Shown here piece by piece: positions 25,848 to 55,293 of a stretch of 64,000 bases of DNA. The DNA is from Sordariomycetes sp. S80-01Y (lineage: Eukaryota; Ascomycota; Sordariomycetes): the NCBI GenBank assembly GCA_037042185.1, contig JAXQJY010000030.1, positions 2,542,001 through 2,606,000 of the forward strand, in the 5' to 3' direction. A program made the translations under genes and the position numbers. Numbering within the stretch: the first letter of the stretch is position 1; each line of letters opens with the position of its first letter. Below the pieces are notes generated by a model. That model was not told where the DNA came from. It did no database searches and saw only the letters and a program-made list of their open reading frames with translations.

Positions 25848-26948
25848 TCAAGCTGAAATACCGTTGAAAACGCCCCCTTCCCCCCAGACCGCGCCATCCT
25901 TCCCACAGTTCACGTACTCGAACCGTCCCTCCCCCTCCTTCAACACGACGACCTCGTGCCACGTCCTGAACTTCCTTTCCGGCCCAAAAACTTTTGCATG
26001 CTTCATAGCGCCGCCATAGATTGCCAGATGGCTCTTATGGCCCTTCGCCCACGTCTCCAACGCATTCAGCGAGGCAAAGTAGCCGGTGACGCAGGTTTCC
26101 TTGAGAGACTCGGTCTCTGGCTGGGTAGGCGATGACGCCGCGTTGCGGAGGTATCTTAGGTTGGCGGCTCCTGAAGTTGGCGTTGACCGCAGATACGATA
26201 GGCCGGCGCGAAGGGTTGGCTCGAGCTTGCCCTCGTAAGAGCGGACCTCTTCTTCGGGGCAGTTTTGCCAGTACTGCCCCGTTCGAATATGAACGATGTT
26301 GTTTGAGTTTTCGGCGACGACATGACTTGGCCCGTCATCAGCGACTACTTTTGCTTTTAGCACTGCATCTTCATTCTGTCCTTCGAACAGGTCGTGCGCT
26401 GACGCCCCAAGTCGATCTCTCGCAGCGCCCCAGTACGCTGTCAGAGTGTGCTCCTCCGTCCTGGTTCCAGGTAACCTCGCTACACCTGGCAAGTAGTCGA
26501 GGCCAGAGTAGTTTGTTTCTAGTCTCGATACAGGAACGCTGAATGTCTCTAACCATAAGCCGACCGATGGTTGGACGTCTTTTGGAAGGCTTTCATGAAC
26601 CAAAGGTAGTTGAAATCGTGAAAGAAATTGCTTGTATTGGTCCGTGTCGCTCCAGTAGCAGACAATGACACGGCGAATGTCGATTTCGTTCCAGTCCATG
26701 GCCTCAAAATCTTCATATACACATCCTGAAGCACTGTCAGTGACACGCTCTCGTATCTGCCCAAGAGCGTTGCTCAGTCTATCGGCAGACGGCGCATCGT
26801 GGACATCCCGACGCAGCTGCACTCCCACGTATGCGACTGAGCAACGCGCGTCTGGTCCATCGTCGTCGAAGCGGAGGTGCCATCGCGGCACTGGAGGTTG
26901 ATGCCCGTCTGGCCGCTGCAGAGGGTACGTTCGGTTAGCAGTGCACAT
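25848..26948 (-). CDS. Aldoxime dehydratase (haem-containing dehydratase, PF13816)
   Basis: An intronless frame of 366 codons starts at the ATG at 26948. The N-terminus has the family pattern YPLQRPDGHQPPVPRW followed by a beta strand (VAYVGVQL). The C-terminal third carries the haem-pocket segment HKSHLAIYGGAMKH near residues 304-317, whose SHL histidine matches the proximal haem ligand. RTWHEVVVL follows near 329-337, and its His corresponds to the catalytic acid-base residue. The EYVNC strand is present, but the usual following His-Pro is replaced by Gly-Lys. These enzymes use ferrous b-type haem to dehydrate aldoximes to nitriles and are often linked to nitrile or phenylacetaldoxime metabolism. 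No nitrilase or P450 is visible close by, so the pathway is not complete in this window. Length is normal for the family (about 350-370). Confidence 0.88.
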   Translation of the reverse strand: MCTANRTYPLQRPDGHQPPVPRWHLRFDDDGPDARCSVAYVGVQLRRDVHDAPSADRLSNALGQIRERVTDSASGCVYEDFEAMDWNEIDIRRVIVCYWSDTDQYKQFLSRFQLPLVHESLPKDVQPSVGLWLETFSVPVSRLETNYSGLDYLPGVARLPGTRTEEHTLTAYWGAARDRLGASAHDLFEGQNEDAVLKAKVVADDGPSHVVAENSNNIVHIRTGQYWQNCPEEEVRSYEGKLEPTLRAGLSYLRSTPTSGAANLRYLRNAASSPTQPETESLKETCVTGYFASLNALETWAKGHKSHLAIYGGAMKHAKVFGPERKFRTWHEVVVLKEGEGRFEYVNCGKDGAVWGEGGVFNGISA

Positions 26949-27728
26949 GATGAACGACTTTAGAGTGAGGGCGATTTACGAAGCGTAAGCCACTGAGGTG
27001 GGGAAGTTTGGGCCTGGGGATCTTATACACGGCATGACGGGATCGTCGGCTAATGCGGATCGTGGCGTCGCGACGGCGACAGCTGCCGCATCTTCGTATT
27101 TGCTGATTCTTTCTGACATTGCATTCAAAGAGTCACTAACCCGACATGGTCAAGTTACTGCATTTGATTGGAAGTCGTCGTTTTCGCAAAGGATTCAGCG
27201 CTTCACGGAACGGAGAGCTGTCATGCTGAGTACCTCTGTCTCATCGAAAGGAGCTGCCACCGGCATGAACATGATCTGACTGAGCGGTGAGCCATATGCA
27301 AAACTCTTTATTTCTACCACCTGAGATGCGAAGATGTACGCTTGGCGCGAACATCTGTCTTGTTCACCCCTAGACTTGGCCCTTTGCCTCTAGGCGTCGC
27401 CATCGATCCCGGGAGCGTTGGGATGGGCTGGCTAGTCCTTTTCAAAAGGAGCTATACGAAGCATTCATGTTCGCCTGTTGAGGAGAAGGCTCGGCTTGAG
27501 CCAGGGCCCGTGGAACATTCAAGTGAGACTATCGGGTGTGGTCTACTGAACGGCTGCGCTGGGATGAGGGGCGGTCTTACGACGGTGTTTTTGGCCATTC
27601 TTTCACAGGTTCAAAGACAGGGGAATTCGGTTCACCTTCTCAGCTCACTGCAAGCTTTTACACAAGACAAGAAGAACAGGTGCTAACAGTTACTGTTTCA
27701 AGGGCGGACAGGATACAGTCTGGGGTTC

Positions 27729-28069: not shown

Positions 28070-28076
28070 TATAAAG
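28070..28076 (+). promoter_or_regulatory. TATA box of the methyltransferase gene
   Basis: TATAAAG stands about 155 bp upstream of the ATG and is followed by a CT-rich leader, the usual core promoter layout of strongly expressed filamentous-fungal genes. Confidence 0.5.
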
Positions 28077-28228
28077 GGGCTTCGATTGACCTGAACTGAA
28101 CTTCCCCCCTTTTCTTTCTGCCCTCATCCCCTCACAGCAGCCCCTTTCTCTCTCTCTCTTCTCTTAACACTCAACTTCTTTTTCCTGACTACCATCCTCC
28201 GACTACACCAAGCTACTCTTCAACAACC

Positions 28229-29215
28229 ATGGCTACCAACACTCCTAACCACCGCATCTCTGACATTGGTGGCAGCCAGGCTATCGTGGACTAGGGTTCC
28301 ACGGTGCCTGACGCCTTCAAGGGTCGGGGCGACTTCGCCAAGGAGCTTTGCTACACCTCTTCCATGGCCTACTGGAACGCCATTGCCGATACCAGCTACC
28401 AGACCGCCCATGAGCTCGAGATCATCAAGAAGACCGCCGACGACGTTGTCCGCCAGCTTCCTTCGCCTGTTCGTGTCATCGACCTCGGCGCCGCCAACTC
28501 TGCCAAGTTTGCCCCTTACATCAGTGCTGCTATTCAGCAGGGCAAGGAGGTAACCTACTACCCGCTTGACCTTAGCTACGACTCTCTTATCCAGCAGGTT
28601 GAGCGCTTCTGCGGCCTCTTCCCCGAGCTTTCTGACCATGTCCACGCCCTCTGGGGCAGCTTCGAGAATGGCGACCGCTTCTTCCACCGCATTGACGGCT
28701 CTCGTCTTTTCCTGTCTCTCGGAAGCATCTTCTTCAACGCCCCCGAAAAGCTCTGCGACGTCCGCTGCACTGAGTTCAAGCGCCACATGGGCCCCAATGA
28801 CCGCCTCGTAGTTGGCCAAGACTCCCCTTGTGCCGATGGTGACGCTTCTCACTCTTACTACAAGTCGCGCCAGTACAACGCCTTCATGGCCGCCTACCTT
28901 GCTGAGCTCCAGAAGCACGGCGGCATCCAGGCCGACGATGTCACCACTGCCTGGTCTTGGGAGTCGCGCATGGAGTCGTCTATGCACTACTTCCACCTGG
29001 AGGCCAAGCGCAACCTTGCTCTTGGCGACGGCTTCCCTATTGCTGCGGGCACCTCCTACCGACTCTTCAAGAGCTGGAAGCGCGGCGAAGAGGAAATCCA
29101 CGCCATCTCTAGTGCTAACGGCCTTGCTATCAACACCATCGGCAAGGCTGCGGAGTCTGGTATGACCCAGTACCTCCTCTTTGGCCGCTCTGCCTCTCGT
29201 GCCGGTCTGCACTGA
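28229..29215 (+). CDS. EgtD-like (PF10017) SAM-dependent methyltransferase with an in-frame TAG at codon 22
   Basis: The frame from the ATG at 28229 (context CAACCATGG) reads 21 codons, meets TAG at 28292-28294 and continues uninterrupted for 306 codons. The segment before the stop (ISDIGGSQAIVD) already matches the N-terminal family motif, so the two halves belong to one protein of about 328 residues. Downstream are the SAM-binding motif VIDLGAANSAK, a YYPLDLSYDSL motif, FLSLGSIFFNAP and MGPNDRLVVGQD, and a C-terminal AAGTSYRLFKSWKRGE. PF10017 includes histidine N-alpha-methyltransferase (ergothioneine) and the ergot N-methyltransferase EasF. This single-domain protein lacks the sulfatase-like half of Egt1, so its substrate is unknown. 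The next in-frame ATG (28364) would remove 45 residues. The UAG sits in a stable hairpin loop, making mRNA editing to UGG plausible; a nonsense mutation is the alternative. Confidence 0.75.
28283..28305 (+). other. Hairpin with the in-frame UAG in its loop
   Basis: The transcript segment ATCGTGGA pairs with TCCACGGT (eight pairs, one of them G-U), leaving a seven-base loop CUAGGGU. UAG occupies loop positions 2-4 and is the premature stop of the methyltransferase gene. The structure is read directly from the sequence; its function is inferred. Confidence 0.65.
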
Positions 29216-53847: not shown

Positions 53848-55293
53848 ATGGCCTTCATTCGCTCTCTAGCCGCTGTTGCGGCCCTCGTCTCAGCCGTCAG
53901 CGCTCAAGCTGTCTCCGGCTCGCCGTACGGATTCGCCTCTGGGGTCACTGGCGGCGGTGATGCCGAAGCTGCTACGCCCTCCTCGGTTGAGGACCTTGCT
54001 GAGTGGCTCTCCGACGACACTCCGCGCACGATCCTCATCGACCAAGAGTACGACTTCACCGGCACGACTGCCACCGACTCCGGCTGTTCTCGCATCAGCT
54101 GCAGCGTCGAGAACGGTGGCCAGCTGTACCTCGGCGATCTCTCCTGCGGAACCGACGACAACATTGCTATCGCCTCGATTGAGTACGATGTCGCCGGCAC
54201 GGAGCCTCTGATTGTTGGAAGCAACAAGAGCATCATCGGCAACGGCCAGGCCGTTCTTGTCGGAAAGGGTCTGCGCCTTGCTAAGGGCTCGAGCAACGTT
54301 ATCATCCAGGGCATTGAGATCACCAACCTCAACCCCGGCATCGTCTGGGGCGGCGACGCCATCGACTTCCAGGGCCAGAACGATGGTGTCTGGGTCGACC
54401 ACTGCAAGGTCTCTCTGGTCGGCCGCATGTTCGTCGTGACACACTACGACGGATCTCGCATCACCATCTCCAACAACGAGTTCGACGGCGTCACCGACAC
54501 CTCCGCCAGCTGCAACGGCAACCACTACTGGACCATGATGTTCTACGGCGAGGGCGACCAGGTGACCTTGGACAAGAACTACTTCCACGACGTTGCCGGC
54601 CGCGCCCCCAAGCTTGGCCAGGACGGCACCTCGGCTACCTTCCAGGCGACGAACAACTACTTCCAGAACATGAAGGGCCACGCCTTCGACGCGTACTCGG
54701 GATCCGTCGCCATCATCGAGGGCAACGTCTTCGAGTCCGTCGACCAGCCCGTCACGGATGGTACCGTCCAGGTCTCGACCATCTTCAACGCGGCCGACGA
54801 GTCGGCTGCCAGCTCCTGCGAGTCGTACATTGGCCGAGCCTGTGCCATCAACAGCGTCGACTCGGCCAGCGGCGACTTCCCTGCCATGTCTGAGACGAGC
54901 GCTCTCGAGACCTGGGCCGACCTGACAGACTATCTCGTCGAGCCGATCGACGCCGGAGAGGTTGCAGCCCACGTCTCGTCCAACGCTGGTCCTGCGAACC
55001 TCGGTGCTAGCGAAGACACAGCTGACGCTGCGCCTGTGGATGACTCGGAGGAGGCGGACGAGGAGGTCGCTGAGCCGGTTGAGAGCCCTGAGCCGGTTCC
55101 CGAGGACGACACCAACGAGGAGACTGGCTCGGTCGAGGTTGCTCAGCAGTACGGCCAGTGCGGCGGAAACAACTACAAAGGTCCCACGGCTTGCGTCGAG
55201 GGAACGTCTTGCGTCTCCCACAACGAGTGGTACTCCCAGTGCCTGAGCTCTGCTGCCAGGCGCAAGATGAAGCGGTCTGTCCACCGCGTTTGA
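53848..55293 (+). CDS. Secreted pectin lyase (PL1) with C-terminal CBM1
   Basis: An intronless frame of 481 codons. A signal peptide (MAFIRSLAAVAALVSAVSAQ) precedes the PL1 beta-helix of about residues 20-375. Pectin-lyase motifs are GFASGVTGGGDAEA, NVIIQGIEITNLNPGIVWGG, VWVDHCKVSLVGRMFVV, NGNHYWTMMFYGEGDQVTL and YFHDVAGRAPKLG, whose Arg is the catalytic residue. A strongly acidic Glu/Asp/Pro linker (about 385-430) leads to a fungal cellulose-binding CBM1 (QQYGQCGGNNYKGPTACVEG to WYSQCL). A basic tail of about ten residues follows the last Cys, which is unusual because CBM1 normally ends the protein. The enzyme cleaves methyl-esterified homogalacturonan by beta-elimination, and the CBM1 would hold it on plant cell walls. 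This supports a plant-degrading lifestyle. Confidence 0.93.
   Translation: MAFIRSLAAVAALVSAVSAQAVSGSPYGFASGVTGGGDAEAATPSSVEDLAEWLSDDTPRTILIDQEYDFTGTTATDSGCSRISCSVENGGQLYLGDLSCGTDDNIAIASIEYDVAGTEPLIVGSNKSIIGNGQAVLVGKGLRLAKGSSNVIIQGIEITNLNPGIVWGGDAIDFQGQNDGVWVDHCKVSLVGRMFVVTHYDGSRITISNNEFDGVTDTSASCNGNHYWTMMFYGEGDQVTLDKNYFHDVAGRAPKLGQDGTSATFQATNNYFQNMKGHAFDAYSGSVAIIEGNVFESVDQPVTDGTVQVSTIFNAADESAASSCESYIGRACAINSVDSASGDFPAMSETSALETWADLTDYLVEPIDAGEVAAHVSSNAGPANLGASEDTADAAPVDDSEEADEEVAEPVESPEPVPEDDTNEETGSVEVAQQYGQCGGNNYKGPTACVEGTSCVSHNEWYSQCLSSAARRKMKRSVHRV

What the first reader, a model, noticed from the sequence alone, without database searches (positions are those of the whole stretch)
28283..28305. 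In-frame UAG in a hairpin loop near the start of an intact methyltransferase gene
The PF10017 methyltransferase reads family-like residues on both sides of a TAG at codon 22 (IGGSQAIVD-stop-GSTVPDAFKG) and has no other damage. The TAG is centred in a 7-base loop closed by an 8-bp stem (ATCGTGGA/TCCACGGT). A-to-I mRNA editing in sexual tissues of Fusarium, Neurospora and Sordaria prefers A preceded by U and located in hairpin loops, and it recodes UAG to UGG. If edited, the gene would be active only in sexual development and silent (21-residue peptide) in hyphae.
Basis: partly seen in the sequence, partly recalled or inferred. Interest (0 to 1): 0.82.

Follow-up and report, generated by a model that had tools for sequence, protein, structure and literature searches.

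The report
Stop codon likely erased in RNA
A fungal methyltransferase gene is cut short by a single stop signal sitting in an RNA loop shaped like the one the cell's tRNA-editing enzyme works on, so the full protein is probably made only when that enzyme rewrites the message, a known kind of fungal gene control that here rests on DNA evidence alone.

Summary
A TAG at 28292-28294 interrupts one otherwise open frame (ATG 28229, stop 29213-29215, PF10017 methyltransferase). The 21 codons before it are coding: gene-like codon usage, and their peptide matches the N-terminus of one paralogue in the same genome (0 of 5000 shuffles as good; two other paralogues not significant). The predicted hairpin is rare: 9 of 4502 simulated nonsense TAGs sat in a hairpin loop in so stable a fold. 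The A is the third base of a 7-base loop, CUAGGGU, like A34 in a tRNA anticodon loop, one base from the loop of this genome's tRNA-Pro(AGG). Five of six flanking bases are those preferred in Fusarium. The genome encodes a DUF726 protein with residues tied to mRNA editing by Ame1 in Sordariomycetes. Best reading: a premature-stop-correction gene, UAG to UGG by Tad2-Tad3-Ame1, most likely in sexual tissue. RNA reads and orthologues were not available, so a recent strain-specific nonsense mutation remains the main rival. New member of a known kind.

The parts
28070..28075 (+). TATAAA, likely core promoter element
   Evidence: seen; followed by 28100-28228, 78% C+T against 57% in the CDS, as fungal 5' leaders often are (recalled)
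28229..28291 (+). First 21 codons of the methyltransferase frame, MATNTPNHRISDIGGSQAIVD, from the first ATG of the leader
28292..28294 (+). In-frame TAG, codon 22; candidate A-to-I site is A 28293
   Evidence: flanking bases compared with the preferences in PMC9600606
28283..28305 (+). RNA hairpin: 8-bp stem (one U-G), 7-base loop 28291-28297 CUAGGGU with the A third
28277..28310 (+). Extended stem: five further pairs below a 1-base bulge
28295..29215 (+). Remaining 306 codons and the natural TGA stop; PF10017 domain
28364..28366 (+). Next in-frame ATG after the TAG (a start here would drop the first 45 residues)

Best explanation
The gene is a premature-stop-correction (PSC) gene. Shown here: one frame coding on both sides of a UAG, and a strong predicted hairpin that places the A of UAG like A34 of a tRNA anticodon loop. 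Inferred: in the unedited message translation stops after 21 residues, so the methyltransferase is off; when the Tad2-Tad3 tRNA deaminase is turned towards mRNA by Ame1, most likely in developing perithecia, the A becomes inosine, UAG is read as UGG (Trp) and the 328-residue enzyme is made. The substrate of the enzyme is unknown; it belongs broadly with the EgtD/EasF-like N-methyltransferases.
For: Coding signal across the stop: rank 1 of 311 in-frame stops that have at least 20 open codons on each side and 150 on one, in 264 kb, with either codon table; peptide match to the C16 paralogue, 38% identity of the read-through N-terminus to that paralogue's first exon. Hairpin beyond chance for random nonsense TAGs: 9 of 4502 in a loop with a fold as stable; anticodon-like geometry with a stem of 8 or more pairs in 5 of 4502; not forced by the protein sequence, 7 of 3000 synonymous recodings as stable. 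-2 C, -1 U, +1 G, +2 G, +3 G are preferred bases in F. graminearum, +4 U is not. Sites in more stable hairpin loops are edited more (PMC9600606 passages; PMC4817773 passages). The DUF726 gene at C13:1431556 has MV at the FgAme1 500-501 position, D at 589, E and R at 546 and 548, placed by offset. The loop differs by one base from that of the native tRNA-Pro(AGG). No intron passing the filter removes the stop while keeping the start.
Against: No RNA data. No orthologue found: 0 relatives in genome contigs and viral contigs, which are prokaryote and virus collections, so conservation of the TAG is untested. Codon 22 aligns with Val, not Trp, in the paralogue, in a poorly conserved stretch. In a 132-base window the total folding energy is not unusual (z -1.7, 11 of 200 shuffles as good). 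The tRNA-loop resemblance is weak evidence alone: about 4 in 64 by chance to match the last three loop bases of one of the four A34 tRNAs with G35 (my estimate, tRNA set recalled). The one DNA methyltransferase gene found, of the kind of the PSC gene FgRID, has no stop in its matched domain.
Confidence: 0.72

Rival explanations
1. A recent nonsense mutation has made this a young pseudogene in the sequenced strain; the hairpin is coincidence.
For: One strain only; a single lesion is what a young pseudogene shows; no orthologues to compare.
Against: A random TAG would lie in a hairpin loop in so stable a fold in 9 of 4502 cases and in an anticodon-like loop with 8 or more pairs in 5 of 4502; the stop is TAG, the only stop that a single A-to-I change turns into Trp at a U-preceded A; no other stop in 328 codons.
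Confidence: 0.17
2. The 21-codon frame is a regulatory upstream frame: ribosomes reinitiate or leak to ATG 28364 and a 283-residue protein is the normal product.
For: ATG 28364 begins 69 bases after the stop and short upstream frames allow reinitiation (recalled); in some Fusarium species automated annotation took the first ATG after the CHE1 stop as the start (PMC11169179 section 7).
Against: The 21-aa peptide resembles the paralogue's N-terminus; the first 21 codons after the TAG are coding too (0.369) and would be lost; ATG 28229 has A at -3 and G at +4, ATG 28364 has T at -3 and G at +4.
Confidence: 0.06
3. The stop is removed by splicing: CTAG 28294 serves as the 3' splice site of a 5' intron.
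For: Branch-like CTAAC and CTGAC lie upstream and four GT sites between 27918 and 28065 could serve as donors; a TAG in the DUF726 gene L014 reads like such an intron acceptor (my reading).
Against: All four candidate introns remove the start codon, and all four donors lie upstream of TATAAA 28070, three of them by more than 120 bases; the candidate upstream exon has no clear coding signal (-0.10 to 0.014); the only two GTs between 28085 and the stop do not fit GTRNGY.
Confidence: 0.03
4. UAG is bypassed by programmed readthrough at a low rate.
For: Stem-loop at the stop; one frame open on both sides.
Against: The stop is inside the loop rather than 5' of the structure, and its context UAG GGU is none of the readthrough signals I recall (UGA CUA, UAG CAA UUA).
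Confidence: 0.02

Closest known systems
PUK1-like premature-stop-correction genes of Fusarium graminearum and Neurospora crassa (PMC4817773, passages; PMC11156358, parts 1-2 of 3)
   Same: UAG inside an otherwise intact frame, A preceded by U, A in a predicted hairpin loop
   Different: Editing not shown here; stop at codon 22; no PF10017 methyltransferase is named in the passages I saw, and the supplementary gene list was not readable
CHE1 hyphal PSC editing in Fusarium (PMC11169179, outline, passages and section 7)
   Same: UAG PSC site in a predicted hairpin loop
   Different: CHE1 is a zinc-finger transcription factor, edited in hyphae, more so after hydrogen peroxide, and its stop is conserved in close Fusarium species
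OLD-ZAO editing module of Neurospora crassa (PMC12754623, passages)
   Same: UAG correction, hairpin-loop and U(-1) preference, by a deaminase
   Different: There the deaminase gene forms a pair with its target; here the nearest of 9 OTT_1508 deaminase matches is 129 kb away and the target is no transcription factor
tRNA-Pro(AGG), one of the A34 substrates of Tad2-Tad3 (substrate class recalled)
   Same: 7-base loop, U33-A34-G-G-G-U
   Different: C instead of U at position 32, longer stem, no tRNA body; ARAGORN and Rfam call no tRNA here

Membership tests
Premature-stop-correction (PSC) genes | UAG in frame within one coding sequence, not in an intron or at the end | tested here: met
   no transcript data
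Premature-stop-correction (PSC) genes | A preceded by U and in a hairpin loop | tested here: met
   (prediction only)
Premature-stop-correction (PSC) genes | Preferred bases at -2 to +4 | tested here: met
   5 of 6 match, +4 does not; two of the six are fixed by the UAG itself
Premature-stop-correction (PSC) genes | A-to-G change in RNA, stage-specific | not testable with these tools
   no RNA reads held
Premature-stop-correction (PSC) genes | Site conserved or restored in orthologues | not testable with these tools
   no fungal collection; two searches found 0 relatives. Lack of conservation would not exclude it: 9 of 240 such genes were also edited in Sordaria (PMC5381528 passages)
Tad2-Tad3-Ame1 mRNA editing host | Ame1 of the editing type (MV at 500-501, D589) | tested here: met
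   L016; positions by offset from the catalytic-serine column (Gly in L016), assuming FgAme1 has L016's spacing; FgAme1 itself was not aligned. Residues from PMC11087585 passages
Tad2-Tad3-Ame1 mRNA editing host | Tad2 and Tad3 genes | tested here: inconclusive
   7 PF00383 matches, not assigned; the one read (L026) is closest to other deaminases. Both are essential in yeast (PMC11087585), so presence is expected
OLD-ZAO module | Deaminase gene adjacent to the edited gene | tested here: not met
EgtD (L-histidine N-alpha-methyltransferase) | NCBIfam TIGR03438 score over cut-off | tested here: not met
   55.8 bits, cut-off 290.9
EasF family methyltransferase | NCBIfam TIGR03439 score over cut-off | tested here: not met
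   86.8 bits, cut-off 205.55
Pfam PF10017 Methyltransf_33 | Score over gathering cut-off | tested here: met
   100.9 bits, cut-off 23

The most novel reading that the evidence does not exclude
The hairpin is an anticodon-arm mimic of tRNA-Pro(AGG), good enough for the tRNA deaminase to edit it with little or no Ame1, so that this methyltransferase is switched on by tRNA-editing capacity itself, in hyphae as well as in fruiting bodies.
Probability: 0.08. Interest if true: 0.75.

Novelty: new member of a known kind. Interest (0 to 1): 0.5.

Why it matters
If true, it adds an enzyme gene, stopped almost at its start codon, to the set of fungal genes kept off by a genomic stop and switched on by RNA editing. 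The anticodon-loop geometry makes it a clean substrate for asking what Tad2-Tad3 sees in an mRNA. It also warns that annotation could drop the first 45 residues or call a pseudogene.

Tried and rejected
Intron removing the TAG: four candidates passed the filter (GT donor with 3 of 4 consensus bases, length 40-420, acceptor up to 28500, branch-like motif), all remove the start codon; upstream exon without clear coding signal. Other stops in the same scan: the second-ranked of 311 (TAA 60065) lies in an ordinary intron on reading; the others were not followed. A TAG inside the DUF726 gene L014 first looked like a second case but reads as an intron acceptor. Kinase family as a way to a PUK1 orthologue: 140 matches from 127 of 161 candidates scored, none with two TAGs; stops inside were not sorted from introns, no conclusion. 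DNA methyltransferase family for a RID-type case: two matches in one frame, no stop inside. tRNA-Pro pattern with the intron-less arm: 0 matches; the 5' half gave 12 matches with up to 3 mismatches (5 for the reversed control), of which two were read; one of these two passed Rfam's gathering score. Related loci in genome contigs and viral contigs: none. PDB: the single match of the domain was a histidine N-alpha-methyltransferase chain at E 0.15. Taxon by PDB neighbours of three window proteins: not informative. Papers: in the listings of ten searches I saw none on an edited PF10017 gene; supplementary tables could not be read.

Both were redone with frames chosen by codon score and this gene left out. 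First against redone: codon score 0.266 against 0.346; non-coding windows as high 0.4% of 2660 against 3 of 2040; hairpin loop with as stable a fold 4 of 2500 (sampled from 5258) against 9 of 4502; any-loop stem of 9 or more 27 of 5258 against 16 of 4502; anticodon-like with 8 or more pairs 5 of 5258 against 5 of 4502. The synonymous recoding still uses codon counts of the first frame choice and was not redone; one search uses the first table.

Full report
What is there. The window is part of a 30.87-Mb, 16-contig genome. On the + strand, ATG 28229 opens a frame of 21 codons, then TAG at 28292-28294, then 306 codons to TGA 29213-29215. The downstream frame is a PF10017 methyltransferase (100.9 bits), below the curated limits of both EgtD and EasF. 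TATAAA stands at 28070 and the first ATG after it is 28229.

Is the part before the stop really protein? Pfam does not reach it. Two independent tests say yes. With codon usage trained on 50 long frames in 264 kb (the window plus 20 stretches of one contig; this gene left out), the 21 codons score 0.346 in frame and negative in the other two frames; 3 of 2040 non-coding-frame windows score as high, and 781 of 1020 coding windows score no higher. Ranked by the weaker flank, this TAG comes first of 311 in-frame stops that have at least 20 open codons on each side and 150 on one (also first). And the peptide matches the N-terminus of the C16 paralogue, PNH-RISDIGGSQAIVD against PKHGEILDIGGSKMMSD, 0 of 5000 shuffles as good; the other two paralogues give no significant match, 455 and 1815 of 5000. 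PF10017 matches fell at four places in the genome, this one included.

The hairpin. RNAfold gives -20.2 kcal/mol for 37 bases (z -3.5, 0 of 200 shuffles as good), and the same stem in 61 bases (1 of 200), 81 bases (0 of 200) and 132 bases, though at 132 bases the total is not unusual (z -1.7, 11 of 200). In a 1301-base transcript model the stem stays, pair probabilities 0.95-1.0 and 0.71 for the closing pair. The loop is CUAGGGU with the A third. As a control for 'any nonsense mutation to TAG', each of 4502 codons one step from TAG in 59 coding frames was turned into TAG in a script (this gene left out): 1540 have the A in a hairpin loop, 9 of those in a fold as stable as the real one; 24 have a 7-base loop with the A third, 2 of them as stable; 16 have a perfect stem of 9 or more pairs (G-U allowed) around a loop of 3-9 bases holding the A, and 5 the anticodon geometry with 8 or more pairs, 3 with 9 or more. 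By that count the real stem has 9, because a further U-G pair is possible where RNAfold prefers the bulge. The anticodon geometry was noticed before this control was made, so those counts are post hoc; the count of 9 of 4502 is not. Among all TAGs of the window, in any frame, stems of 9 or more around loops up to 9 occur in 5 of 439 on + (this one included) and 6 of 505 on -. Synonymous recoding reaches the real stability in 7 of 3000 draws, so the protein does not force the hairpin.

Fit to fungal editing. Papers seen in part: in F. graminearum 62% of editing sites lie in hairpin loops and more stable loops are edited more (PMC9600606 passages; PMC4817773 passages); C/U, U, A/G, G, A/G, A/G are favoured at -2 to +4 (PMC9600606 section 6). 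Here the bases are C, U, G, G, G, U. Besides PUK1, 69 or 70 genes with UAG-to-UGG correction are reported there (PMC4817773; PMC11156358). The enzyme is Tad2-Tad3, the A34 tRNA deaminase, with Ame1 (PMC11087585 passages). The window's genome has three DUF726 matches. One, at C13:1431556 (L016), has MV, D, E and R at the FgAme1 500-501, 589, 546 and 548 positions, by offset from the catalytic-serine column; L015 has D, E and R too but not MV. In the MAFFT alignment the MV columns hold LN in L015 and LD in L014; by plain offset they are GL and SL, since L016 has one residue more before the serine. MV in place of KN is the change reported as the Sordariomycete innovation. FgAme1 itself was not at hand to align. 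The catalytic serine is Gly in L016; the paper reports that the triad is not essential for editing, though D589 is needed. This makes an editing-competent Sordariomycete likely, not proven. The genome's tRNA-Pro(AGG) gene (L042, Rfam 51.7 bits; L043 did not pass) has the loop UUAGGG, an intron, then U (my reading): one base from the mRNA loop.

How it probably works. Unedited, ribosomes start at a good context and stop after 21 codons. Edited, UIG is read as UGG and the whole enzyme is made. Stage is inferred from other species. I put 0.72 on this, because the number of strain-specific nonsense alleles in such a genome is unknown, the orthologues are unseen, and there is no RNA.

What is known and what is new. 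The mechanism is known. That this gene belongs to it is a prediction. The PSC features that could be tested were met, except the base at +4; the two decisive ones, editing in RNA and conservation, could not be tested. The OLD-ZAO arrangement is not met: the nearest of nine OTT_1508 matches is 129 kb away.

Noticed in passing
L016 (C13:1431556-1432602): Ame1-like DUF726 protein with Gly in place of the catalytic Ser of the GYSLG motif, consistent with a non-enzymatic role.
   Followed up: partly
C9, C3, C16, C15, C14, C13: Nine OTT_1508-type deaminase matches in this genome, the domain of the Neurospora OLD editing enzymes. Their neighbours were not looked at for ZAO-like genes with a UAG.
   Followed up: no
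window 25851-26975, - strand: Haem-containing dehydratase (PF13816, E 2e-88), upstream of the methyltransferase on the other strand.
   Followed up: no
window 53848-55290, + strand: Pectin lyase with a C-terminal cellulose-binding module (PDB matches).
   Followed up: no
L039:2959 - strand, L038:7556 + strand, window 14764 - strand: Other in-frame stops (TAA, TAG, TAG) with fair codon scores on both sides, ranks 3, 4 and 5 of 311; introns not excluded.
   Followed up: no
C16:2899019-2899888: Only one place with cytosine DNA methyltransferase matches was found in the genome.
   Followed up: no
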